The position numbers and the translations under genes were made by a program. From Armatimonadetes bacterium Uphvl-Ar1 (GTDB lineage: Bacteria > Armatimonadota > Fimbriimonadia > Fimbriimonadales > Fimbriimonadaceae), in the NCBI GenBank assembly GCA_002162075.1, contig CP021423.1, forward strand, positions 2,418,001 to 2,482,000: DNA of 64,000 bases, read 5' to 3'. Of this stretch, positions 16,722-26,323 are shown one piece after another. Under the pieces are notes generated by a model that saw only the letters and a program-made list of their open reading frames with translations, searched no databases and was not told the DNA's origin. Position 1 is the first letter of the stretch. Every line of letters begins with the position of its first letter.

Positions 16722-17776
16722 GGGCTCTCATCCTCGACAAAATCGCTAGCGTCACCCAGAATGCCGCTCTCCGCCGAGATGTCCGAATCAGCGACACTTA
16801 CCCCTGTCAAGAAGGCGACATTGTCGCCGTCCGTGTTCTCACAAACAAGGCAACTTACAATGCCCTCGAGCTCACGACAGGAAGAATGTCCATCCTCAAG
16901 CAGGGCGATATCATCGCCGGAGCACTGGGGCATCGCAATGCCCTCCAGGGCTACGCCGGACACATCCCCAGAGCCCTCAAAACTGGCGACACGATTAACC
17001 TCCTCAATATGGGCGGCGTCCTCGGCATTTGCACCAGCCATTCACCACTCGTCGGACCGCCTCACCAATGTGAACTCCTCGGGAGCATTCTCAGCTTCCC
17101 CACCCTCAACTCCCGCCAAGGCGTTCCCGCCAACATCGCTACCAACGCCCCCCAGCTCCAATCCAAACTTCAAAACAATCTCCCCCCCATCATCGCCGTC
17201 ATCGGCACTTGCATGAATTCCGGCAAAACTGAAGCTTGCCTCACCATCATCCAACAACTCGTCCGCCGGGGCCTCAAAGTTTCTGCCGCCAAAACCACAG
17301 GCGTTTCCCTTCGTCGCGACATCCTTGCTATGGAAGATGCCGGAGCCACTGAGGTCGCTATTTTCACTGACCTTGGCATCGTCACAACCCAAGCCTCTAA
17401 CGGTGCAAACCTCACAAAAACCCTTATCAACAAACTCGCTCAGTCAACTCCAGATGTCATCATCCTCGAACTCGGCGATGGACTTCTCGGCGAATATGGA
17501 GTCGCCGCAATTCTGAACGATTCCCAAATCGCCGCATCCCTCACCAGTATCGTCCTCGCCGCTTCCGACCCTGTCGGGGCGTGGGGCGCAGTCGAACTTC
17601 TTAACCGCCGACACCAGATCACGCCCACTCTCATTACCGGACCCGCCACCGACAACACCGCCGGAAGCGAAGTCATTTTCCGTGAAACACAAATCCCCGG
17701 GCTGAACGCTCGCCACAACCCCATTGAGATTGTCGATCTTCTGGCCAAAACTCTCACCCCAAAAACTCATGTCTAA
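16718..17776 (+). CDS. Unknown P-loop NTPase embedded in the arginine operon
   Basis: 352 residues from the ATG at 16718, which overlaps the argG stop (ATGA). Residues 1-130 form a domain rich in G-D and G-G turns (G-D-I-V-A-V-R-V, G-H-R-N-A-L, L-L-N-M-G-G-V-L-G). Residues 160-172 have a Walker A-like G-T-C-M-N-S-G-K-T, and residues 247-261 a hydrophobic strand V-I-I-L-E-L-G-D-G-L-L-G that could serve as Walker B. The C-terminal part resembles dethiobiotin-synthetase/MobB-like or DUF1611-like NTPases. The gene overlaps argC by 8 bases, so it is translated with the pathway. It occupies the slot where other operons hold argD or an acetyltransferase. Its function is unknown; a kinase, ligase or amino-acid-sensing role are all possible. 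Confidence 0.75.
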   Translation: MRALILDKIASVTQNAALRRDVRISDTYPCQEGDIVAVRVLTNKATYNALELTTGRMSILKQGDIIAGALGHRNALQGYAGHIPRALKTGDTINLLNMGGVLGICTSHSPLVGPPHQCELLGSILSFPTLNSRQGVPANIATNAPQLQSKLQNNLPPIIAVIGTCMNSGKTEACLTIIQQLVRRGLKVSAAKTTGVSLRRDILAMEDAGATEVAIFTDLGIVTTQASNGANLTKTLINKLAQSTPDVIILELGDGLLGEYGVAAILNDSQIAASLTSIVLAASDPVGAWGAVELLNRRHQITPTLITGPATDNTAGSEVIFRETQIPGLNARHNPIEIVDLLAKTLTPKTHV

Positions 17777-18818
17777 ACACATCCCCACAATCGTCCTCGG
17801 CAGCACCGGCTACGTCGCCGCCGAAATCATCGGACTTCTTCTGAATCATCCCAGCTTCCGCATCGAAGCCGCAATCAGCACTTCCCAAGCCGGAAACCGG
17901 ATTGACGAAATCTTCCCTCACCTCATCGGCCCCGCCGGAGACTTGACCTTTAAATCGCTCGACCAAATCTCCAATCTCCTCGCCTCAAAACGCCAAACCG
18001 CAATTTTCTCTGCCCTTCCCCACGGTGAAACCGCCGCCTTCATCCAAAACCTGCTCCAGCAGTCCAAAACGAACGCCCAAATCGTGGACGTCTCCGCTGA
18101 TTTTCGTTACCGTACATCCGACGAATACGAAGCAGTCTATGGCAAACCTCATCCCGCACCAGAACTCCTCAGCTCATTTACATGTGCCCTCCCGGACATA
18201 ACCCCATCAACTCCCGACACCCACATAGCTCACCCTGGTTGTTTCACAACATGCGTCACTCTTCCCCTCGCGGGACTCTTTGCATGTGACCTCATCGAAC
18301 CCCATGTCAACGTCTCTGCCGTCACCGGATCAACCGGTGCCGGACGCCAACCCGGAGCAGGCACCCACCACCCGCACCGCCAAAGCTCGATGTGGGCTTA
18401 CCAACCCCTCAATCACCGCCACAAACCAGAAATGGAAAATCTCGTCGCCCCCTGGGAGCCCAACGCGCAAGTCACTTTCGTTCCCCACTCTGGACCGTTC
18501 GCACGAGGTATCCACGCGACAATTTTCGCAACCCTCAAATCAAACTCCGACTCCGAAGCCGTCATCGCCCAACTCCAAAAATTCTTTGAGCCATCTCCAT
18601 TCATCCGTGTCGGCTCCAAGATGCCCGAGCTCAAATCCATTGTCGGCTCAAATCGCTGCCAAATCGGGATCGCTGTCCAGGGCCGACAACTCGTCACGAC
18701 TGGCATCATCGACAATCTCGTGAAAGGTGCTGCCGGAGGTGCCGTCCAGTGGATGAACCGCCTCTTTAGCCTCGAAGAAACTGAGGGCTTGCTCAACGCC
18801 ACTCCCGGCTGGATATAA
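17769..18818 (+). CDS. argC: N-acetyl-gamma-glutamyl-phosphate reductase
   Basis: 349 residues from the ATG at 17769. It has an NAD(P)-binding start (V-L-G-S-T-G-Y-V-A-A-E), the catalytic Cys in H-P-G-C-F-T-T near residue 158, and the family segments G-S-T-G-A-G and F-V-P-H-S-G-P-F-A-R-G. It reduces acylglutamyl phosphate to the semialdehyde. Given the succinyl-type residue in the downstream carbamoyltransferase, the acyl group could be succinyl rather than acetyl. Confidence 0.92.
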   Translation: MSKHIPTIVLGSTGYVAAEIIGLLLNHPSFRIEAAISTSQAGNRIDEIFPHLIGPAGDLTFKSLDQISNLLASKRQTAIFSALPHGETAAFIQNLLQQSKTNAQIVDVSADFRYRTSDEYEAVYGKPHPAPELLSSFTCALPDITPSTPDTHIAHPGCFTTCVTLPLAGLFACDLIEPHVNVSAVTGSTGAGRQPGAGTHHPHRQSSMWAYQPLNHRHKPEMENLVAPWEPNAQVTFVPHSGPFARGIHATIFATLKSNSDSEAVIAQLQKFFEPSPFIRVGSKMPELKSIVGSNRCQIGIAVQGRQLVTTGIIDNLVKGAAGGAVQWMNRLFSLEETEGLLNATPGWI

Positions 18819-18822
18819 ATTC

Positions 18823-19809
18823 ATGAACGACTTCCTCTCCCTCCGAAATCTCCCCCGCGATCAAATTCAGAGCCTGGTCAATCTCGCCCGCGAACTCAAA
18901 GCCAACCCCATAAACGACACCCTCAAAGGAAAAGTGATCGGCCTCCTCTTCATGAATCCCAGCCTCCGCACCCTTGCCAGCTTCCAGTCGGGAATCGGGC
19001 AAATGGGCGGAACCAGCGTCGTGATTCAACCAGGCACCGGAACCTGGACTCTCGAAACCCGTGACGGCGTCGTGATGGATGGCTCCGAAGTCGAACATAT
19101 CAGCGAAGCTATCCCCGTTCTTGCCTCTTATTGCGACATTCTTGGCATCCGTTCGTTCGCCAATCAAATCAATCTCAAAGAAGATCTCGCCGACGGCCTC
19201 ATGCACAAGTTTGCCGACCTCTCCCCCAAACCTCTCATCAACATGGAATCCGCCAGCGATCACCCGTGCCAAGCCCTCGCCGATTGGCAAACCCTCGATG
19301 AACTCAACATCCCGTCAGACGGCAACTTCGTCCTCAGCTGGGCATGGCATCCTAAACCTCTCTCCTACGCTGTACCCCGCGCTGCCCTTTCCATGGCCTC
19401 CCTCCGAGGAATGAATATCACGATCCACTCCCCCAAATCTCACCCTATCCCCGATGAACTCATCGCCGAAGCCAAAACCCTCGGCGCAAAGTCCATCCGC
19501 CACACCCATACCCCCGCCGAATCACTCAAAAACGCCGATGTTCTCTACTGCAAATCGTGGGTTGCCCCCCAAAACTACGGCAATCCGGAAGCTGAGATGC
19601 TCCTCCGGAAAGACCTCCGTAACTGGTGCGTCGCCGAATCCTGGTTCCAAACCGCAGAGCCCGACGCCAAATTCATGCACTGCCTGCCCGTACGTCGCAA
19701 CGTCAAAGTCGCCGACGAAATTCTCGATGGTCCTCGCTCTGTCGTCATCCATCAAGCCGAAAATCGACTTCACGCTCAAAAGGCAATCCTCACAAACCTG
19801 ATCAACTGA
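18823..19809 (+). CDS. argF': N-acylornithine carbamoyltransferase (ArgF', acetyl/succinyl-ornithine type)
   Basis: A 328-residue protein related to the acylornithine rather than the ordinary ornithine transcarbamylases. Carbamoyl-phosphate binding is shown by F-M-N-P-S-L-R-T (43-50), H-P-C-Q (147-150) and H-C-L-P (286-289). The stretch G-T-W-T-L-E-T-R-D-G-V-V-M-D-G (71-87) and S-W-A-W-H-P-K-P-L (172-180) are family hallmarks. Residue 90 (in D-G-S-E-V-E-H) aligns with the specificity position that is Glu92 in Xanthomonas acetylornithine and Pro90 in Bacteroides succinylornithine enzymes. Here it is Val, which points to succinylornithine. It replaces argF/argI in the route, so citrulline is made as an acyl derivative and deacylated by ArgE'. 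Confidence 0.9.
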   Translation: MNDFLSLRNLPRDQIQSLVNLARELKANPINDTLKGKVIGLLFMNPSLRTLASFQSGIGQMGGTSVVIQPGTGTWTLETRDGVVMDGSEVEHISEAIPVLASYCDILGIRSFANQINLKEDLADGLMHKFADLSPKPLINMESASDHPCQALADWQTLDELNIPSDGNFVLSWAWHPKPLSYAVPRAALSMASLRGMNITIHSPKSHPIPDELIAEAKTLGAKSIRHTHTPAESLKNADVLYCKSWVAPQNYGNPEAEMLLRKDLRNWCVAESWFQTAEPDAKFMHCLPVRRNVKVADEILDGPRSVVIHQAENRLHAQKAILTNLIN

Positions 19810-19810
19810 C

Positions 19811-20683
19811 ATGCAATCCACCACCGTCCAAGCCCTCCGCCACGCCTTGCCCTATCTCGAACATTACCGTGGCAAACTCTTTGTCTTGAAATGTGGCGGC
19901 GAGGCCCTTGGGCACCCGTCCCACCTCGCCAGCCTCATCGAGCAAATCGCCGTCCTCCACCAACTTGGAATCCAAATTGCCCTCGTTCACGGTGGCGCCC
20001 CGCAAGCCACTCAACTCGCCAAGACCTTAGGACAAGAGCCAACATTCATTGACGGTCGCCGGGTCACGACCCCAGAAGCCCTCGAATCCACAATCATGGC
20101 GATCAACGGGCTCGCTCAAGCCACACTGCTCGCCGCCGCCCGCCGGCAAAATCTACCCGCAATTGGCCTCTCCGGGATCGATCACGGAATCATTCAATCC
20201 ACTAAACGCCCACCCGTCAAAACCAGCCAAGGCACTAAGGATTTCGGTCAAGTTGGAGACATTCAAACCGTCAACTGTAAACCGCTCAAAAACCTGATTG
20301 CCAATCAAACGATCCCTTTCATGAGCCCCATCTCCGCCGATTCAGAAGGCCAAATCCTCAACATCAATGCCGATGACGTCGCCGCCCAAATCGCCCTGGC
20401 TCTTGGAGCTACCAAGCTCATTCTGGTCACAACTCCCCGGGGCATCCTGAGCGATCCCGGAGATCAAAACTCTCTGATCTCCCAACTCACCCTTTCCGAG
20501 CTCGATCAACTGCATCGGAGCGGAATAATCTCGACCGGTATGCTCCCCAAATCCAAAGCCATTCGCACCGCTCTGGAAAACGGTGTCGAGCGCGTTCACG
20601 TCATCAGCTACCAGTTCCCTGACAGCATCCTCACCGAAGTTTTCACCAATGAGGGCTGCGGTACCCTGATCCTCAATGACTAG
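19811..20683 (+). CDS. argB: Acetylglutamate kinase family (N-acylglutamate kinase)
   Basis: A 290-residue amino-acid-kinase fold protein: the N-terminal V-L-K-C-G-G-E-A-L, the L-V-H-G-G loop near residue 59, the T-P-E-A-L-E segment and the C-terminal S-T-G-M-L-P-K nucleotide site. It phosphorylates N-acetyl- or N-succinyl-glutamate. It starts one base after the argF' stop. A 201-base stretch with no gene separates it from argE', the only large gap in the operon. Confidence 0.9.
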   Translation: MQSTTVQALRHALPYLEHYRGKLFVLKCGGEALGHPSHLASLIEQIAVLHQLGIQIALVHGGAPQATQLAKTLGQEPTFIDGRRVTTPEALESTIMAINGLAQATLLAAARRQNLPAIGLSGIDHGIIQSTKRPPVKTSQGTKDFGQVGDIQTVNCKPLKNLIANQTIPFMSPISADSEGQILNINADDVAAQIALALGATKLILVTTPRGILSDPGDQNSLISQLTLSELDQLHRSGIISTGMLPKSKAIRTALENGVERVHVISYQFPDSILTEVFTNEGCGTLILND

Positions 20684-20884
20684 TTTAATTACTTTGAACC
20701 GAATGTTCCCCGTCAGGTCGATGAGACACTCTTTGACGTTCTCCCGATCGCTCATCTCAGCTATGGAAGCGCTTCATTTTCGGGTAGGCGGGAACCCAGT
20801 CCCGAGAGAGAGTGCCAAAGGCACCTCCTTAATCCTAACCAAGTCTCAAGTAAGCGATCAACTGTGTCAGGGGGATACCACCCT
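20684..20884 (+). repeat. Non-coding insertion-like stretch inside the arginine operon
   Basis: This 201-base gap breaks an otherwise overlapping operon. It contains small inverted repeats: GAAGCGCTTC (20766-20775) and GTGCC-AAA-GGCAC (20812-20824), plus a GGGA...TCCC pair around 20790-20802. A short minus-strand frame starting at 20755 runs into argB and looks like chance. The clustered palindromes suggest a REP-like or mobile repeat relic. A copy elsewhere would be needed to prove it, and none is in the window. Confidence 0.35.
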
Positions 20885-21933
20885 GTGACTAACCTCCTCG
20901 CCCTCCACCGCGATCTCATCGCGATCCCTTCCGTTTCCCACAGCGAAACAGAAATCGCTGACTTCGTCTTCTCCTACCTCACACAAAACGGCATAACCCC
21001 AACTCGAATCGGCAACAACATCATCGCCCAGACCAGCGACGAAACACGACTTCTCCTCAATTCCCACCTCGACACCGTGCCCCCAACGATGCGTGGACGC
21101 GACCTCCCTGGGAACCCACTCAAGAGAACGACATCATCTTCGGCCTCGGATCCAACGACGCAAAAGGATGTGTTGCCGCCATGATCACCGCCTTCATCGC
21201 CAACAAATCAACCCCCGGACTGGCCCTCCTCCTCAGTCCCGAAGAAGAAACCGGTGGTCAAGGCACCGAATTTGCTTGGCCGATCCTCCGCGATGAACAG
21301 AACTGGCACCCGGAAGCCATCATCGTCGGCGAACCTTCCGAACTCCAAATCGGCACCGTCCAACGCGGACTTCTCCTCCTGGACCTCGTCGCAAAGGGCC
21401 AAGCCAGCCACGCCGCTAACGCCGACCCGAGTGGCAAAACGAATCCCATTTTCACTCTTGCCCGTGACCTCGTCAAGCTCCAAAACATCACCCTCACCCC
21501 TCACGCCGAACTTGGTCAACCCACCATCCAACCGACCACCTTGACGGGAGCCGAAGCCCGAAATCAGATCCCTGGCGAAGCCCGAGCCAGCTTCGATATC
21601 CGAACCGTTCCTATCGAAACCCACGCTGAAATCATCGCTCTCCTTGAAGAAACTCTCACCTCCGAAATTGAAGTTCGATCCCAACGGCTCACGCCTTTCG
21701 CTTGCAACCCCGAAGCCCGAATCATCCGGACAATACAATCCCTCCACCCACAGTCCAAAACCTTCGCCAGCCGCACGATGTCGGATCAAGTCCACTTCAC
21801 TGGGTTCAATGCCGTCAAATTCGGTCCTGGTGTCTCTGCCCGATCCCATACTGCCGACGAATTTATCCTCGCTTCCGAACTCATCGCCGGGGCACAAGCC
21901 TACGACCAAATCATCAAGGAATTCCTATCATGA
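20885..21933 (+). CDS. argE': N-acyl-citrulline/ornithine deacylase (ArgE'/LysK-type M20 peptidase), frameshifted
   Basis: GTG at 20885 preceded by an AGGGGG sequence; a GTG at 20864 is an alternative. The M20 fold is clear: metal-site N-S-H-L-D-T-V-P-P, then D-A-K-G in the other frame, S-P-E-E-E-T-G-G-Q-G and the final S-A-R-S-H-T-A-D-E. As given, the frame breaks at the C5 run 21080-21084. One extra C yields H-L-D-T-V-P-P-N-D-A-W and one continuous protein of about 349 residues. It should remove the acyl group from N-acylcitrulline after ArgF', matching the Bacteroidetes pathway. It overlaps argH by 4 bases (ATGA). The frameshift is probably a sequence error. Confidence 0.85.
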
Positions 21934-23108
21934 ACAAAACGACTCGCCTCTGGGACAAAGGCCAACCCATCAACGACCAAATCCTCGCCTTTACCGTTGG
22001 CAACGACCCCCTCCTCGACCAACGCCTTATCCCCTACGACATTACTGCCAGCGTCGCCCACGCCCAAATGCTTGGCGAACAAAACCACCTCACCCCAGAA
22101 GAAGTCGAAAAACTCACCCGAGCCCTCGAAGAACTCCGAAGCGAAGACATCCAAATCTCTATACAAGAAGAGGACTGCCACACCGCCATCGAAAACCACC
22201 TCACCCAAAAGCTCGGCGGCCTCGGCGGCAAGATTCACCTCGGACGATCCCGCAACGACCAAGTTCTCACTGCCCTCCGACTCTATTACCGTCAAGTTAT
22301 TGCCGATATTCATTCCTACACAAAAGAGGCCGTGGCAAGTCTGATAGAGCTCGCCCACAACCAAGGCGAGATCAAAATCCCTGGATACACCCACCTCCAA
22401 CAAGCCATGCCCTCATCTGTATCTCTATGGGCTGATGGATACGTTGCCGAGCTCAATCATTCTCTCAACTCATTTGCCGCCGCCGATCACCTCGTCATAC
22501 TCAACCCCCTCGGGTCTGCCGCAGGCTACGGCACCCCCGGGCTCACCCTTGACCGTGAATCCACTACCAAAAAACTCGGATTCAACCAAACCCACGAACC
22601 CGTCACCGCCCCACAACTCAGTCGAGGAAAAGCTGAATCCGCCCTCGCGTTCAGCCTGTGCCTCATCATGCAAGATCTCGGCCGACTCGCCGCCGATCTC
22701 TGTCTCTATAACTCCCAAGAATTTGCCCTCGTCACCCTTGCCGATGACATCACGACCGGGTCAAGCATCATGCCCCAAAAGCGCAATCCCGATGTCTTCG
22801 AACTCATCCGGGGCCACTCCGCCCAGGCTCCCGCCGAACTCCAAGCCATCCAGAACATAACCCTCAAGATGTCCTCTGGCTACCACCGCGACCTTCAACT
22901 GATCAAAGAACCTCTCTTCCGACTCATTGACCGCACCCAACAAACCCTCCAAATCACCGCCTACGCTCTGACACGAATCACCTTCGACACCGACCGAGCG
23001 GCTCAAATAACTGACCCCGGAATCCACGCCGCCGAAGCCGCATTTGCTCTCGTTCAAACAGAGAAAATCAGCTTCCGTGAAGCCTACCGCCGCATCGCAG
23101 CAAACTAA
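21930..23108 (+). CDS. argH: Argininosuccinate lyase (short form)
   Basis: 392 residues from the ATG at 21930. It has the fumarase/aspartase superfamily signature S-S-I-M-P-Q-K-R-N-P-D near residue 277 and the catalytic G-Y-T-H-L-Q-Q-A-M-P region. Most ArgH are about 460 residues; this one lacks the C-terminal tail and ends at F-R-E-A-Y-R-R-I, as in Bacteroidetes-type operons. It splits argininosuccinate to arginine and fumarate, the last step. A strong hairpin terminator follows. Confidence 0.92.
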   Translation: MNKTTRLWDKGQPINDQILAFTVGNDPLLDQRLIPYDITASVAHAQMLGEQNHLTPEEVEKLTRALEELRSEDIQISIQEEDCHTAIENHLTQKLGGLGGKIHLGRSRNDQVLTALRLYYRQVIADIHSYTKEAVASLIELAHNQGEIKIPGYTHLQQAMPSSVSLWADGYVAELNHSLNSFAAADHLVILNPLGSAAGYGTPGLTLDRESTTKKLGFNQTHEPVTAPQLSRGKAESALAFSLCLIMQDLGRLAADLCLYNSQEFALVTLADDITTGSSIMPQKRNPDVFELIRGHSAQAPAELQAIQNITLKMSSGYHRDLQLIKEPLFRLIDRTQQTLQITAYALTRITFDTDRAAQITDPGIHAAEAAFALVQTEKISFREAYRRIAAN

Positions 23109-23189: not shown

Positions 23190-24779
23190 TTAGTCCGCCA
23201 GAAACTGGCGAATCAAACTCGGAACCGAAGCATCAAATCCCACTACATTGAGTGTGAGCGGATCACCCGGATCTCCAATTGTTGACCTCGAAGAAGCCAT
23301 TGCGACAACAATCAACTTCGCCCGAGGATTTAACTTGCTTCGGTACTCCTTCATCGCTTGCGCCGGATGCTGACTTCCGTACCAGGTTTCTGAGTCTGTG
23401 TAGATCACAAACGCGTCCACCGCCAACTTCCGCTTCAGCGCAAAGTGGATCGGAGCCGCACAGTCCGTTCCTCCGCCTCCGGTCTTCTCAAGAATCCCGA
23501 CTACGTGATCCAATCGCATTGAACGATTCAACTTCAGTTCATACGCTTTCGTGTCAAAAGCGATATGCGTAACCGATTCTTCTTGAGCCGAAGTCACGAG
23601 AGCCATCGCCGCACAAGCCTTTCGGCAGTCCAGCCCGGCAATTCCCGCAACCGACGTTCCGCACATCGATCCCGAAACGTCAAGCCCCAGCACCAAGCGT
23701 CGGCCCGCTGATTCCACGTTCTCGAACGAGTCGTAAAACGCACGGTCAAGCGCATCAACCACTCTTTGAACCGGCTTCCACGTTCCAGTTCCCCGGAACC
23801 CTCGCCCGCTCGAATAAGTGTTCAAAGCCGCCAAAATGGTGATCGGGTGAATCCGCGACTTCCGCAACCGCATCGGGTTCTCAAGCGCCGAAACAACCGT
23901 TTCAACTCCGTTCGAGTACCCCGAAAGGATGCCCTTACGCAACACGCCAAGCTTGGAAAGATTTCCCAAATTTCGCAGCATCGCCGTCAATGGCATATCA
24001 TCCAACAAAGCTTCCCAAACCAGCGGCTCAGTCAACCATTCTGTCGGAACAGCTTCTCGCGGTATCCGATTCTCGCGAATCAAACGACACGCTTCCGCAA
24101 GATCAGTCACTTGGTGTAAAGCCATCGCCGCCCGAACAATCGGAATCTCCAGATTCAACTCCTTAGCCGTTGCCCACTTGAACAAAGCATTGTGCTCGTC
24201 CGACACCGCTACCGGGTGAGCGAGCCGCAGCAAGTCACGGTGACTCCAACCATTCCGAGACTGATACTTGATCAATCCGTAAGCCAAGGCCTCCGCAGAT
24301 TGCGAGTTGTACCAATTTCCAATTGCCTTCCGCAATCCGCGACCCCATCCTCGGAGAGAGTCACAAGCTGAAGCAAATGCAAACAAGTGCGTTCCAGTTC
24401 GGCATACGAGCGGTACGGCAACATAGGCTGCCTTCCGAGTCGGCTCATCCCCGTACGTTGTCGCCAACGCAAGAGCAAAAATCGCCGCATCGTTCTTCGG
24501 TGCCAGATTTTTCGTGCTGACCTCAATGATTCGCGATACTAACCGCAAACCATCTTCCTTGATTGCCTCGATCACGTTCTGGGCGTTCATCTCCGTCAAG
24601 GCCATGGCCCCAACGTAATAAGTACCTGTCTCGCTCCCAAGGATCAAGAAACGGTCAACGAGTTCCCATCGATCAACCGCCCATCCAAAGCCACCTGCAT
24701 GGTTCTTGGTCTGACCAGAACCTGCAATAGCTCGATTTTGACGGGTCTTATTCGATTGGAAGAGTTGTGTGTATTTCAT
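23190..24779 (-). CDS. rsr: Ro60-type TROVE domain protein (Rsr)
   Basis: A 529-residue protein, the usual length of bacterial Ro. Residues about 10-360 form the HEAT-repeat TROVE ring that binds Y RNA on its outer surface and single-stranded 3' ends in its cavity. Residues about 361-529 are a von Willebrand A domain with an intact MIDAS: D-V-S-G-S-M (367-372), Thr in G-G-G-T-D-C (435-440) and Y-T-D-S-E-T (460-465). AAGGAG lies 9 bases before the ATG. In Deinococcus, Ro with its Y RNA works in rRNA maturation and with PNPase in RNA decay. Here five Y-RNA-like elements lie between a sigma70-type promoter and this gene on the same strand, so all are probably transcribed together. Confidence 0.95.
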   Translation of the reverse strand: MKYTQLFQSNKTRQNRAIAGSGQTKNHAGGFGWAVDRWELVDRFLILGSETGTYYVGAMALTEMNAQNVIEAIKEDGLRLVSRIIEVSTKNLAPKNDAAIFALALATTYGDEPTRKAAYVAVPLVCRTGTHLFAFASACDSLRGWGRGLRKAIGNWYNSQSAEALAYGLIKYQSRNGWSHRDLLRLAHPVAVSDEHNALFKWATAKELNLEIPIVRAAMALHQVTDLAEACRLIRENRIPREAVPTEWLTEPLVWEALLDDMPLTAMLRNLGNLSKLGVLRKGILSGYSNGVETVVSALENPMRLRKSRIHPITILAALNTYSSGRGFRGTGTWKPVQRVVDALDRAFYDSFENVESAGRRLVLGLDVSGSMCGTSVAGIAGLDCRKACAAMALVTSAQEESVTHIAFDTKAYELKLNRSMRLDHVVGILEKTGGGGTDCAAPIHFALKRKLAVDAFVIYTDSETWYGSQHPAQAMKEYRSKLNPRAKLIVVAMASSRSTIGDPGDPLTLNVVGFDASVPSLIRQFLAD

Positions 24780-24820
24780 TTCTTTTTTCTCCTTGTGTTT
24801 TCCAGTCTGATTTCAGTCTC

Positions 24821-24929
24821 GCGGGCAAGTGGCGCCATGGCGTAAACATTGGCAAAGCCAACGCCCCCTAGATTTGAACTAGGTAAACCCAAAAGGGCCT
24901 CTTACCGATAAGCCAGAGCTTCGGCCCGC
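24821..24929 (-). ncRNA. Y RNA-like element Y5 (T-arm module)
   Basis: 109 nt, the copy closest to rsr (42 bases upstream of its start). The ends pair GCGGGC/GCCCGC. The 5' strand carries GGGCCGAAG and GGCTTATC; the 3' strand has GCCATGG (pairing with CTCTGGC) and the CTTGC box. The insert has a perfect T-arm, CCTAG-TTCAAAT-CTAGG (24867-24883), followed at once by a helix of up to 10 bp (GGGCGTTGGC, loop TTT, GCCAATGTTT) that mimics an acceptor stem capped by a triloop. No D-arm is seen. This is a reduced version of the permuted-tRNA module of Y3. Confidence 0.85.
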
Positions 24930-24948
24930 AAGAAAGGCGTTTTGTAAC

Positions 24949-25096
24949 GACTTCCGGACAAGGCTTGGCCTGGGAAAAGTTGCCCGTCCGCGATCCACTC
25001 GCCTCAACGCAGCGCGTTGGTCGCTCTTTCCAGCGAAGACACCCAAAGTGGGCAACTAGGATAGGAGGGATAACCCAAACATCCGGCCCGGAAGTC
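24949..25096 (-). ncRNA. Y RNA-like element Y4 (multi-hairpin module)
   Basis: 148 nt. The outer stem GACTTCCGG/CCGGAAGTC is a perfect 9 bp. The Ro-type 5' strand is GGGCCGGATG then TTTGGGTTATC; the 3' strand has CCCAGG (pairing TTTGGG) and the CTTGT box. The insert is closed by a perfect 7-bp stem GTTGCCC/GGGCAAC (25050-25056 with 24979-24985). Inside are three hairpins: TCGCT/AGCGA, CAACGC/GCGTTG and GCGA/TCGC. The resulting four-way junction is cloverleaf-shaped but has no TTCGA-type T-loop, so it is not an obvious tRNA mimic. Confidence 0.82.
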
Positions 25097-25132
25097 AAAT
25101 CTTCAATTGTTGTCGTTGTAGGGATGAGTCGG

Positions 25133-25266
25133 GATTGCAGACAAGGGTTGCCTTGGCCAAGTGCTCTAACCACTGAGCTACCTTCGCCCCGGAAGGCGAA
25201 AGGCTGGATTCGAACCAGCGACCTCTCACGTTATAGGTGATAAGCCAAAAGCTTCGGCCCGCAATC
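25133..25266 (-). ncRNA. Y RNA-like element Y3 (YrlA-type, circularly permuted tRNA module)
   Basis: 134 nt. Outer stem GATTGC/GCAATC; Ro-type 5' strand GGGCCGAAGC then TTTTGGCTTATC; 3' strand GCCAAGG and CTTGT. The insert is a circularly permuted tRNA body: T-arm GCTGG-TTCGAAT-CCAGC (25203-25219), then an 8-bp acceptor-like helix CTTTCGCC/GGCGAAGG capped by TTCCGG (25181-25202), then exactly two linker bases (TA), then a canonical D-arm GCTC-AGTGGTTA-GAGC (25163-25178) with the GG of a D-loop. The Ro stem takes the place of the anticodon arm. This matches the tRNA-mimic domain known in bacterial YrlA RNAs. Confidence 0.93.
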
Positions 25267-25297
25267 TCAAATTTTCGTCATCGAACCGTTGGAACGA

Positions 25298-25398
25298 ACT
25301 CGCGAACAAGGGGACGCATCTGGCTATTCTTTCCCAGAGACCCGTATGATCAGGCCCCGTGAGTTTCTAAGGTAAGCCAAAAGCTCCGGCTCGCGAGT
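25298..25398 (-). ncRNA. Y RNA-like element Y2
   Basis: 101 nt. Perfect 8-bp outer stem ACTCGCGA/TCGCGAGT. The 5' strand has GAGCCGGAG and TTTTGGCTTACC; the 3' strand has AGCCAGATGC, which pairs with GCTTTTGGCT at 9 of 10 positions, followed by the CTTGT box. The roughly 45-nt insert can form a weak G-U-rich helix (GGGGCCT with GGGTCTC) and shows no T- or D-arm. The Ro-binding part is well conserved while the effector part is not tRNA-like. Confidence 0.82.
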
Positions 25399-25422
25399 AC
25401 GATTCCAAAGTGAATGGTTCAG

Positions 25423-25496
25423 GCGGTAGGCAAGTCACTTGCAACTTGGGTACTTTCTCGGTATCAACGATAACCCAAGGCATCCGGCCCACACGC
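25423..25496 (-). ncRNA. Y RNA-like element Y1 (compact, promoter-proximal)
   Basis: 74 nt, the shortest copy. Outer stem GCG-(T)-GTGGGC/GCCTACCGC with one bulge and one G-U pair. The 5' strand has GGGCCGGATG and CTTGGGTTATC, and CTTGGGT pairs perfectly with ACCCAAG. The 3' side has GACTTGC in place of CTTGT. The loop is only about 20 nt and can fold as TATC-GTT-GATA. It lacks any tRNA-like module and looks like a minimal Y RNA with just the Ro-binding stem. Confidence 0.75.
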
Positions 25497-25625: not shown

Positions 25626-25654
25626 AATGTACCACGCTAAAAAAGGACTGTCAA
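25626..25654 (-). promoter_or_regulatory. Sigma70-type promoter of the Y-RNA array and rsr
   Basis: On the minus strand a perfect TTGACA (25654-25649) is followed after exactly 17 bases by TACATT (25631-25626). The predicted start is near 25619. No other promoter this good was seen between the array elements, and no terminator separates them from rsr, so one primary transcript carrying five Y RNAs and the rsr message is the simplest reading. Confidence 0.7.
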
Positions 25655-25918: not shown

Positions 25919-26323
25919 ATGGCAGTCAAAACCCTATTCGTTGGGAACCTTCCGTTCTCAGCTACAAATACTCAGCTCGAAGCTCATTACGGAGCCTACG
26001 GTGGAACCAACGCCCGCATCATCCCCGACCGAGGATTCGGATTCGTGGACGTGGACGAAGATCAAATGCAAGCCGCAATTGATGCCACCAACGAGCAAGA
26101 CTTCAAAGGCCGAAATATCCGCGTCAACGAAGCTAAGCCCCGAGAAGACCGACCCCGCGAATCACGCGGCGGCGGTGGCGGTGGTTACGGCGGCGGTGGT
26201 GGCGGTGGCTACAACCGAGGCGGCGGAAGCGGCGGCGGTGGTGGTTACGGCGGCGGCGGTGGACGTGGCGGCGATCGTGACCGCGGTGGACGCGGCGGAC
26301 GAGATCGCGACGACCGCTGGTAA
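25919..26323 (+). CDS. Glycine-rich RRM RNA-binding protein
   Basis: A 134-residue protein. Residues 3-78 form one RNA recognition motif with RNP2 (L-F-V-G-N-L) and RNP1 (R-G-F-G-F-V-D-V, one residue different from the classical K-G-F-G-F-V). A Gly/Arg-rich low-complexity tail follows, ending in repeated R-G-G and R-D-R units. The layout matches cyanobacterial Rbp and plant GRP RNA-binding proteins, often cold-induced RNA chaperones. It is transcribed away from the Y-RNA/rsr unit with about 265 bases between their promoter regions, so a shared RNA-related role is attractive but unproven. A hairpin CGCT/AGCG lies just before the ATG and no clear Shine-Dalgarno is seen. Confidence 0.92.
   Translation: MAVKTLFVGNLPFSATNTQLEAHYGAYGGTNARIIPDRGFGFVDVDEDQMQAAIDATNEQDFKGRNIRVNEAKPREDRPRESRGGGGGGYGGGGGGGYNRGGGSGGGGGYGGGGGRGGDRDRGGRGGRDRDDRW

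What the first reader, a model, noticed from the sequence alone, without database searches (positions are those of the whole stretch)
25133..25266. Y3 carries a complete circularly permuted tRNA body
Directly visible order inside the Ro stem: T-arm GCTGG-TTCGAAT-CCAGC; 8-bp acceptor-like helix capped by TTCCGG; a two-base TA linker; D-arm GCTC-AGTGGTTA-GAGC. Read around the circle this is acceptor-D-(anticodon)-T with the Ro-binding stem in the anticodon position. The D-loop GG and T-loop TTCGAAT could form the tRNA elbow. Known: bacterial YrlA RNAs have this domain, and tRNA-processing or modifying enzymes recognise it. The fit here is very tight, which makes it the best template for the whole array.
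Basis: partly seen in the sequence, partly recalled or inferred. Interest (0 to 1): 0.85.

Follow-up and report, generated by a model that had tools for sequence, protein, structure and literature searches.

The report
Y RNA containing a whole permuted tRNA
Next to a bacterial Ro60 gene lies a small RNA whose core is a whole transfer RNA with its ends joined and its chain reopened; this is a known trick of bacterial Y RNAs, but here, and in many other bacteria, the RNA also keeps an anticodon arm, which the published descriptions I could read do not mention.

Summary
On the minus strand at 25266-25132, upstream of a Ro60 gene (23190-24779), T-arm, 8-bp acceptor hairpin, TA and D-arm follow one another as described. 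It is a YrlA-type bacterial Y RNA, a class already known to contain a circularly permuted tRNA domain (PDB 6CU1). Relatives show heavy compensatory change (98.6% of cells paired; 0 of 500 shuffles match). A model built only from this genome's own tRNAs, cut and rejoined, finds Y3 as its best hit in the genome (67.8 bits, E 7e-14).

Between Ro stem and T-arm sits a hairpin with a 7-nt anticodon-like loop, then a 5-nt variable loop. The bases after the D-arm (27', 28') pair with 43 and 42, completing a 5-bp anticodon stem. So the Ro60-binding stem appears not to replace the anticodon arm but to be inserted in its 5' strand, between positions 28 and 29. Of 90 Ro60-linked permuted domains from several phyla and viral contigs, 55 have the hairpin (shuffles about 7) and 50 the full split stem. 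The 15-48 Levitt pair covaries (G-C 68, A-U 16). What the retained loop does is inference only.

The parts
25132..25266 (-). Y3, the YrlA-type Y RNA as a whole
   Evidence: Rfam YrlA 30.6 bits, E 2.5e-4, below the gathering score of 69; clade model R1 141.1 bits, the sequence being part of that model
25257..25266 (-). Ro60-binding stem, outer helix, 5' strand GATTGCGGGC
   Evidence: pairs with 25133-25142; 5 of the 12 pairs in this helix have changes on both sides in relatives
25254..25256 (-). bulged C (25256) and GA that pairs with UU of the 3' strand: Y RNA Ro60-binding signature
   Evidence: invariant in 9 orthologues; signature as described for vertebrates in PMC4726728
25133..25145 (-). 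Ro60-binding stem, 3' strand CTTGTCTGCAATC
25244..25252 (-). inner Ro-stem helix, 5' strand GCTTTTGGC (partner GGCCAAGGC at 25158-25150)
   Evidence: sequence complementarity; fold with the Ro stem enforced
25239..25243 (-). UUAUC motif after the Ro stem 5' strand
   Evidence: present in Y1, Y3, Y4, Y5 (UUACC in Y2); a UUAUC motif is also conserved in vertebrate Y RNAs and nematode sbRNAs (PMC4726728)
25227..25239 (-). anticodon-arm-like hairpin: 29-31 CAC, loop 32-38 CUAUAAC, 39-41 GUG
   Evidence: compensatory changes in orthologues; 55 of 90 Ro60-linked domains have at least 3 bp and a 7-nt loop in this register, shuffle mean 6.6; aligned as an anticodon arm by the Rfam tRNA model and by the real-tRNA model R2
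25225..25226 (-). positions 42-43 (AG), proposed to pair with 28' and 27'
   Evidence: 27'-43 Watson-Crick in 75/90, 28'-42 in 77/90; shuffle maxima 44 and 45; off-register at most 48%
25220..25224 (-). variable loop 44-48, AGGUC (G45, G46, C48)
   Evidence: G45-G46 in 65/90; 15-48 is G-C 68, A-U 16, other 6
25203..25219 (-). T-arm GCTGG-TTCGAAT-CCAGC
25181..25202 (-). acceptor helix, closed by a loop instead of open ends
   Evidence: 6 of 7 counted pairs change on both sides among orthologues
25179..25180 (-). U8-A9 linker
   Evidence: TA in 77 of 90 relatives
25163..25178 (-). D-arm GCTC-AGTGGTTA-GAGC
   Evidence: same letters as the D-arm of tRNA-Asp and tRNA-Met genes of this genome
25160..25162 (-). 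A26 and 27'-28' (CU), D-side start of the anticodon stem
23190..24779 (-). Ro60/Rsr gene (TROVE and Ro60 vWA domains)
   Evidence: Pfam PF05731 E 4e-40, PF25045 E 2e-53
25422..25496 (-). Y1, Ro-stem Y RNA
   Evidence: R1 16 bits, E 0.025
25297..25398 (-). Y2, Ro-stem Y RNA with another insert
   Evidence: R1 31 bits; fold z -5.4
24949..25095 (-). Y4, Ro-stem Y RNA with another insert
   Evidence: R1 21.9 bits
24816..24933 (-). Y5, Y RNA with T-arm and acceptor-like hairpin but no D-arm
   Evidence: R1 35.9 bits; relatives
25626..25654 (-). promoter-like site TTGACA-17-TACATT (with TG) before Y1
   Evidence: 10 of 12 matches, but 0.8 sites expected by chance

Best explanation
Y3 is a YrlA-type bacterial Y RNA. 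Its two ends form the stem with a bulged C that Ro60 binds. Its middle is a complete tRNA body in permuted order: anticodon hairpin, variable loop, T-arm, acceptor helix sealed by a loop, U8-A9, D-arm. The chain is open in the 5' strand of the anticodon stem, between positions 28 and 29, and the Ro60-binding stem sits in that gap; 27'-43 and 28'-42 from the D-side plus 29-41, 30-40, 31-39 from the hairpin rebuild a 5-bp anticodon stem. By this reading Ro60 holds the stem while the tRNA-shaped module, elbow included, is offered to proteins that recognise tRNAs: modifying enzymes and, as in the known cases, an effector such as PNPase. Shown here: gene linkage, sequence, covariation, similarity to real tRNAs. 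Inferred: binding, modification, tethering, and any use of the anticodon loop.
For: Ro60 gene directly downstream on the same strand. Orthologues beside Ro60 with 98.6% of cells paired, 15 pairs changed on both sides, 0/500 shuffles, slid controls 29-42%. Real-tRNA model R2 finds Y3 full length, 67.8 bits, best of the genome, and Ro60-linked domains in other phyla and viral contigs up to 73.9 bits. Hairpin in tRNA register 55/90 against 6.6 by shuffling; U33 50/55, R37 51/55. Split stem pairs 27'-43 75/90 and 28'-42 77/90; in the 46 non-redundant domains 34 and 36 against shuffle maxima 26 and 25. 26-44 is not Watson-Crick but mostly purine-purine, as in tRNA. Levitt 15-48 covaries. PNPase is encoded in the genome.
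Against: Score below Rfam's YrlA cut-off (30.6 against 69 bits). Single-sequence folding prefers another arrangement at the base of the Ro stem (-53.6 kcal/mol) to the proposed one with the hairpin (-49.2) or with the split stem (-43.9). 35 of 90 domains lack the hairpin. No expression data.
Confidence: 0.82

Rival explanations
1. Ordinary three-arm YrlA: only T, acceptor and D arms matter; the anticodon-like hairpin is a vestige of tRNA ancestry or a spacer with no function.
For: Many YrlA lack the hairpin, including a high-scoring Rfam member (L376 311-192, 85.3 bits). The 34-36 triplet changes quickly even within the genus. The hairpin is an unmodelled insertion in Rfam's YrlA.
Against: Stem letters change in a compensatory way while U33, R37, G45, G46 and the 7-nt and 5-nt lengths stay; a functionless relic should decay.
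Confidence: 0.3
2. The full tRNA shape, anticodon loop included, is a decoy or sensor: Ro60-bound Y3 captures proteins that act on anticodon loops (anticodon nucleases, t6A or other loop modifiers).
For: U36-A37-A38, called a universal determinant of t6A enzymes (PMC9654439), is in 23 of 35 hairpins outside this phylum against 9 of 29 real tRNAs of this genome (p 0.011). 28 of 55 loops equal a real tRNA loop of this genome against 10.3 expected from column make-up. The Salmonella authors proposed YrlA as competitive inhibitor of an anticodon nuclease (PMC7790460). The triplet is hypervariable.
Against: Y3's own loop CUAUAAC lacks U36-A37-A38. RtcB of this genome lies about 200 kb away. No anticodon nuclease was looked for here. 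Salmonella YrlA was not cut. The counts are not corrected for relatedness.
Confidence: 0.18
3. A true permuted tRNA gene: the transcript is cut and rejoined into a working tRNA.
For: All four arms and core contacts are present.
Against: No CCA; acceptor ends joined by a short loop; Ro60-binding stem conserved; own triplet AUA; congeners have different triplets.
Confidence: 0.02
4. Remnant of a tandem tRNA pair, without function.
For: Tandem tRNA genes match models R1 and R2 over the same positions.
Against: Conserved beside Ro60 with compensatory changes across genera; no tRNA called in the window.
Confidence: 0.02

Closest known systems
YrlA-type bacterial Y RNA (Chen 2014; Wang 2018, PDB 6CU1; Rfam RF02553)
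   Same: Encoded beside Ro60; ends form the Ro60-binding stem; T-arm, closed acceptor helix and D-arm in permuted order. The circular permutation relative to tRNA is published (PMC11472068).
   Different: Extra anticodon-like hairpin (a 12-nt insertion against the Rfam model), so that the Ro stem branches from within the anticodon stem; below Rfam's cut-off.
tRNA
   Same: Four arms, 5-nt variable loop, U8-A9, 15-48 Levitt covariation, non-Watson-Crick 26-44, letters for the elbow contacts.
   Different: Ends sealed at the acceptor, no CCA, chain open in the anticodon stem, Ro60-binding stem added.
Circularly permuted tRNA genes of algae and archaea (PMC3978253)
   Same: Order of halves exchanged.
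   Different: Those are processed to ordinary tRNAs; here the permuted form with the Ro stem appears to be the final product (inference).
Vertebrate Y RNAs and nematode sbRNAs
   Same: Bulged C in the Ro-binding helix; UUAUC after the 5' strand.
   Different: No tRNA-like module; PMC4726728 calls bacterial ones not homologous.

Membership tests
YrlA-type bacterial Y RNA (functional class) | encoded next to a Ro60 gene | tested here: met
   Ro60 at 23190-24779, same strand; the same in relatives
YrlA-type bacterial Y RNA (functional class) | ends pair into a stem with the Ro60-binding signature | tested here: met
   helix 1; invariant bulged C, GA/UU and CUUG
YrlA-type bacterial Y RNA (functional class) | tRNA-like module with T-arm, acceptor and D-arm in permuted order | tested here: met
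YrlA-type bacterial Y RNA (functional class) | binds Ro60 and tethers an effector such as PNPase | not testable with these tools
   only the genes are seen: Ro60, PNPase
YrlA-type bacterial Y RNA (functional class) | carries tRNA-type modifications (pseudouridine by TruB, dihydrouridine by DusA) | not testable with these tools
   target letters are present; described for YrlA in PMC8394870
Rfam RF02553 as curated | score at or above the gathering cut-off of 69 bits | tested here: not met
   30.6 bits, E 2.5e-4. An annotation threshold; other Ro60-linked relatives also score 34-66 bits, so it is not filed as an Rfam RF02553 call
functional tRNA | recognised as a tRNA gene with free acceptor ends | tested here: not met
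   ARAGORN none; Rfam tRNA 19.2 bits against 29; acceptor closed by a loop

The most novel reading that the evidence does not exclude
In about half of the bacterial and viral Y RNAs of the YrlA type examined, the tRNA mimic is a complete four-arm tRNA: the anticodon arm is kept, with a decoding-like 7-nt loop and a 5-bp stem whose 5' strand is opened between 28 and 29 to take in the Ro60-binding stem. The Ro60 particle then displays an anticodon loop that tRNA-recognising proteins can read.
Probability: 0.5. Interest if true: 0.78.

Novelty: new variant of a known kind. Interest (0 to 1): 0.6.

Why it matters
Accessible descriptions of YrlA name D, T and acceptor arms only (PMC8394870). If many YrlA RNAs also keep an anticodon arm, explanations of why Ro60 particles mimic tRNA must account for it, and the proposal that YrlA competes for an anticodon nuclease (PMC7790460) becomes testable in species that have the loop against species that do not. 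It also gives an exact graft point (28/29) and a reason why Rfam misses these RNAs.

Tried and rejected
Ordinary tRNA: none called. Rfam at gathering scores: no hit in the window. Hits of R1 over model positions 27-107 in every genome of the phylum: tandem tRNA genes, not Y RNAs; a first whole-genome pattern also found only tandem tRNAs. Most of the 118 and 120 pattern matches in genome and viral collections lack Ro60 on the fetched stretch. First model of a 4- to 5-bp local anticodon hairpin (28-42, 27-43 on the hairpin side): dropped, because these pairs are mostly U-G or mismatched while the D-side pairs covary. Free-energy folding neither proves nor favours the split stem. Original YrlA papers (Chen 2014; Wang 2018; Sim and Wolin 2018) are not held, so priority for the anticodon arm could not be checked.

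Full report
What is there. On the minus strand between a Ro60 gene (23190-24779; TROVE and Ro60 vWA domains) and a divergent RRM protein gene (25919-26323) lie five Y RNAs with the same end sequences, GRGCCGRA...TTAYC and CTTG. The clade model R1 finds all five: Y1 25496-25422 (weak, E 0.025), Y2 25398-25297, Y3 25266-25132, Y4 25095-24949, Y5 24933-24816. One promoter-like site precedes Y1, but 0.8 such sites are expected by chance. The genome is one contig of 2.99 Mb. Its phylum is probably Armatimonadota, family Fimbriimonadaceae: a named Fimbriimonadaceae contig shares about 90% identity with tRNA genes of genomes in the same family group. That is an inference from relatives, not a proof.

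The finding as stated is correct. T-arm 25219-25203, acceptor hairpin 25202-25181, TA 25180-25179 and D-arm 25178-25163 are all there. Rfam's YrlA model aligns end to end but at 30.6 bits, under its cut-off of 69. The circular permutation of this RNA class relative to tRNA is published (PMC11472068; PMC8394870), so the core of the finding is a new member of a known kind.

Conservation. Thirty-two of 101 related genomes have Ro60. Nine Y3 orthologues upstream of Ro60 were aligned without reference to structure. The structure named beforehand from Y3 pairs in 98.6% of cells, with 15 pairs changed on both sides; 0 of 500 shuffles reach this, and sliding the partners by 1-3 columns gives 29-42%. 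The acceptor helix is rewritten almost completely between species. Caveat: the structure was derived from one of the sequences, which favours it over slid versions.

A non-circular test. I took tRNA genes of this genome, cut 26 of them at position 26/27, joined 3' half to 5' half by TTCG, and built model R2 from these alone. R2 finds Y3 from its anticodon arm to A26 at 67.8 bits, E 1.6e-15 in the window; the next window hit has E 2.3. In the whole genome it is the best hit, E 7e-14; the second, 60.3 bits, is a tandem tRNA pair, as expected for such a model. R2 also finds Ro60-linked stretches of other phyla and of viral contigs, up to 73.9 bits.

The missed arm. Between UUAUC and the T-arm, Y3 has CAC-CUAUAAC-GUG, then AG, then AGGUC. 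In tRNA numbering these are 29-31, loop 32-38, 39-41, 42-43 and 44-48. In orthologues the stem changes in a compensatory way (CAC/GUG, CGA/UCG, UGC/GCA, CGC/GCG, CGG/CCG) while C32, U33, A37, G45 and G46 stay. I collected permuted domains lying on the Ro60 strand of loci that hold a Ro60 gene by HMM: 90 domains, 28 from this phylum and 62 from elsewhere (Streptomyces, Lentzea, Rhodococcus, Nocardia, Acidobacteria, Comamonas, Enterovirga and viral contigs among them). A scan over loop lengths and spacings peaks at loop 7 and spacing 5: 37 of 90 with at least 4 contiguous pairs, shuffle mean 2.6, maximum 9. With at least 3 pairs there are 55, of which 50 have U33 and 51 a purine at 37.

The split stem. 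The two bases after A/G26 at the end of the D-arm (27', 28') are Watson-Crick complementary to 43 in 75 of 90 and to 42 in 77 of 90 domains; shuffles average 31 with maxima 44 and 45, and every other register lies at 48% or less. In 46 non-redundant domains the counts are 34 and 36 (maxima 26 and 25). Position 26-44 is not Watson-Crick but mostly A-A, G-A or A-G, as in tRNAs. Fifty of 90 have both the hairpin and both D-side pairs; in the non-redundant set 18 of 46. So the anticodon stem would be complete, with the Ro stem leaving its 5' strand between 28 and 29. Domains without the hairpin tend to continue pairing at 29'-41, the arrangement drawn in Rfam. Members above Rfam's cut-off can carry the hairpin as an unmodelled insertion (L357, Comamonas testosteroni, 76.1 bits, AGA-CUUUUAA-UCU), and others lack it (L376 311-192).

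Tertiary contacts. Positions 15 and 48 are G-C in 68, A-U in 16, other in 6 (Fisher p about 3e-14 for the G/A by C/U table, not corrected for relatedness). C13-G22 with G46 occurs in 76 of 90. These are the letters that make the tRNA core; that they form is inferred.

Limits. Energy folding gives -53.6 kcal/mol for an alternative, -49.2 with the canonical Ro stem plus hairpin, -43.9 with the split stem enforced; such models do not score stacking of junctions or tertiary contacts, but they give no support to the split stem either. The related sequences are not independent, and the 90-domain set was found with descriptors that demand T, acceptor and D arms (not the hairpin). The key YrlA papers were not readable here.

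Function. The established role of this class is to bind Ro60 and tether it to PNPase (Deinococcus; PMC8394870, PMC7790460); PNPase and RtcB genes exist in this genome, far from the locus. I judge tethering of a tRNA-recognising effector most likely. A decoy or sensor role of the anticodon loop is possible: U36-A37-A38 is frequent outside this phylum (23 of 35 against 9 of 29 real tRNAs, p 0.011), but Y3 itself has A36-A37-C38, and the triplet differs between congeners, so no single tRNA is copied. Over 27-65 Y3 is nearest to tRNA-Ile(GAU) (29 of 39), while its D-arm equals that of tRNA-Asp and tRNA-Met.

Noticed in passing
window 24816-24933 and L037, L042, L038, L036: Y5 and its relatives keep a T-arm with UUCRA loop and an acceptor-like hairpin but have no D-arm, and carry a small extra hairpin before the T-arm: a D-armless, half-tRNA Y RNA.
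   Followed up: partly
window 25243-25239 and the same place in Y1, Y4, Y5: UUAUC follows the Ro stem 5' strand, as in vertebrate Y RNAs and nematode sbRNAs; Rfam's nematode family ceN72-3_ceN74-2 weakly matches Y4 (E 1.2).
   Followed up: no
L026:2381-2508, L013:2401-2529: Some relatives have a Ser/Leu-like D-arm (TGGCCGAGTGGTCGAAGGC), so different tRNA types seem to be mimicked.
   Followed up: no
L076, L119, L129, L181, L184, L274: Tandem tRNA-Asn genes (several of them in Streptomyces) with spacers of a few bases, whose adjoining acceptor strands could fold like the permuted hairpin: a possible origin of such RNAs.
   Followed up: no
L098:1910-3569; L240: A Chloroflexota contig with Ro60 beside 15 tRNA genes, and a viral contig with Ro60, a YrlA-like RNA and about 10 tRNA genes.
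   Followed up: no
L265:4922-5000: ARAGORN calls a tRNA-Thr that overlaps a Ro60-linked YrlA-like domain, probably a miscall caused by its anticodon-like arm.
   Followed up: no
window 25919-26323: Glycine-rich RRM protein gene divergent from the Y RNA array.
   Followed up: no
window 17724-23108: Run of ORFs that look like arginine biosynthesis genes upstream of the Ro60 gene; by eye only.
   Followed up: no
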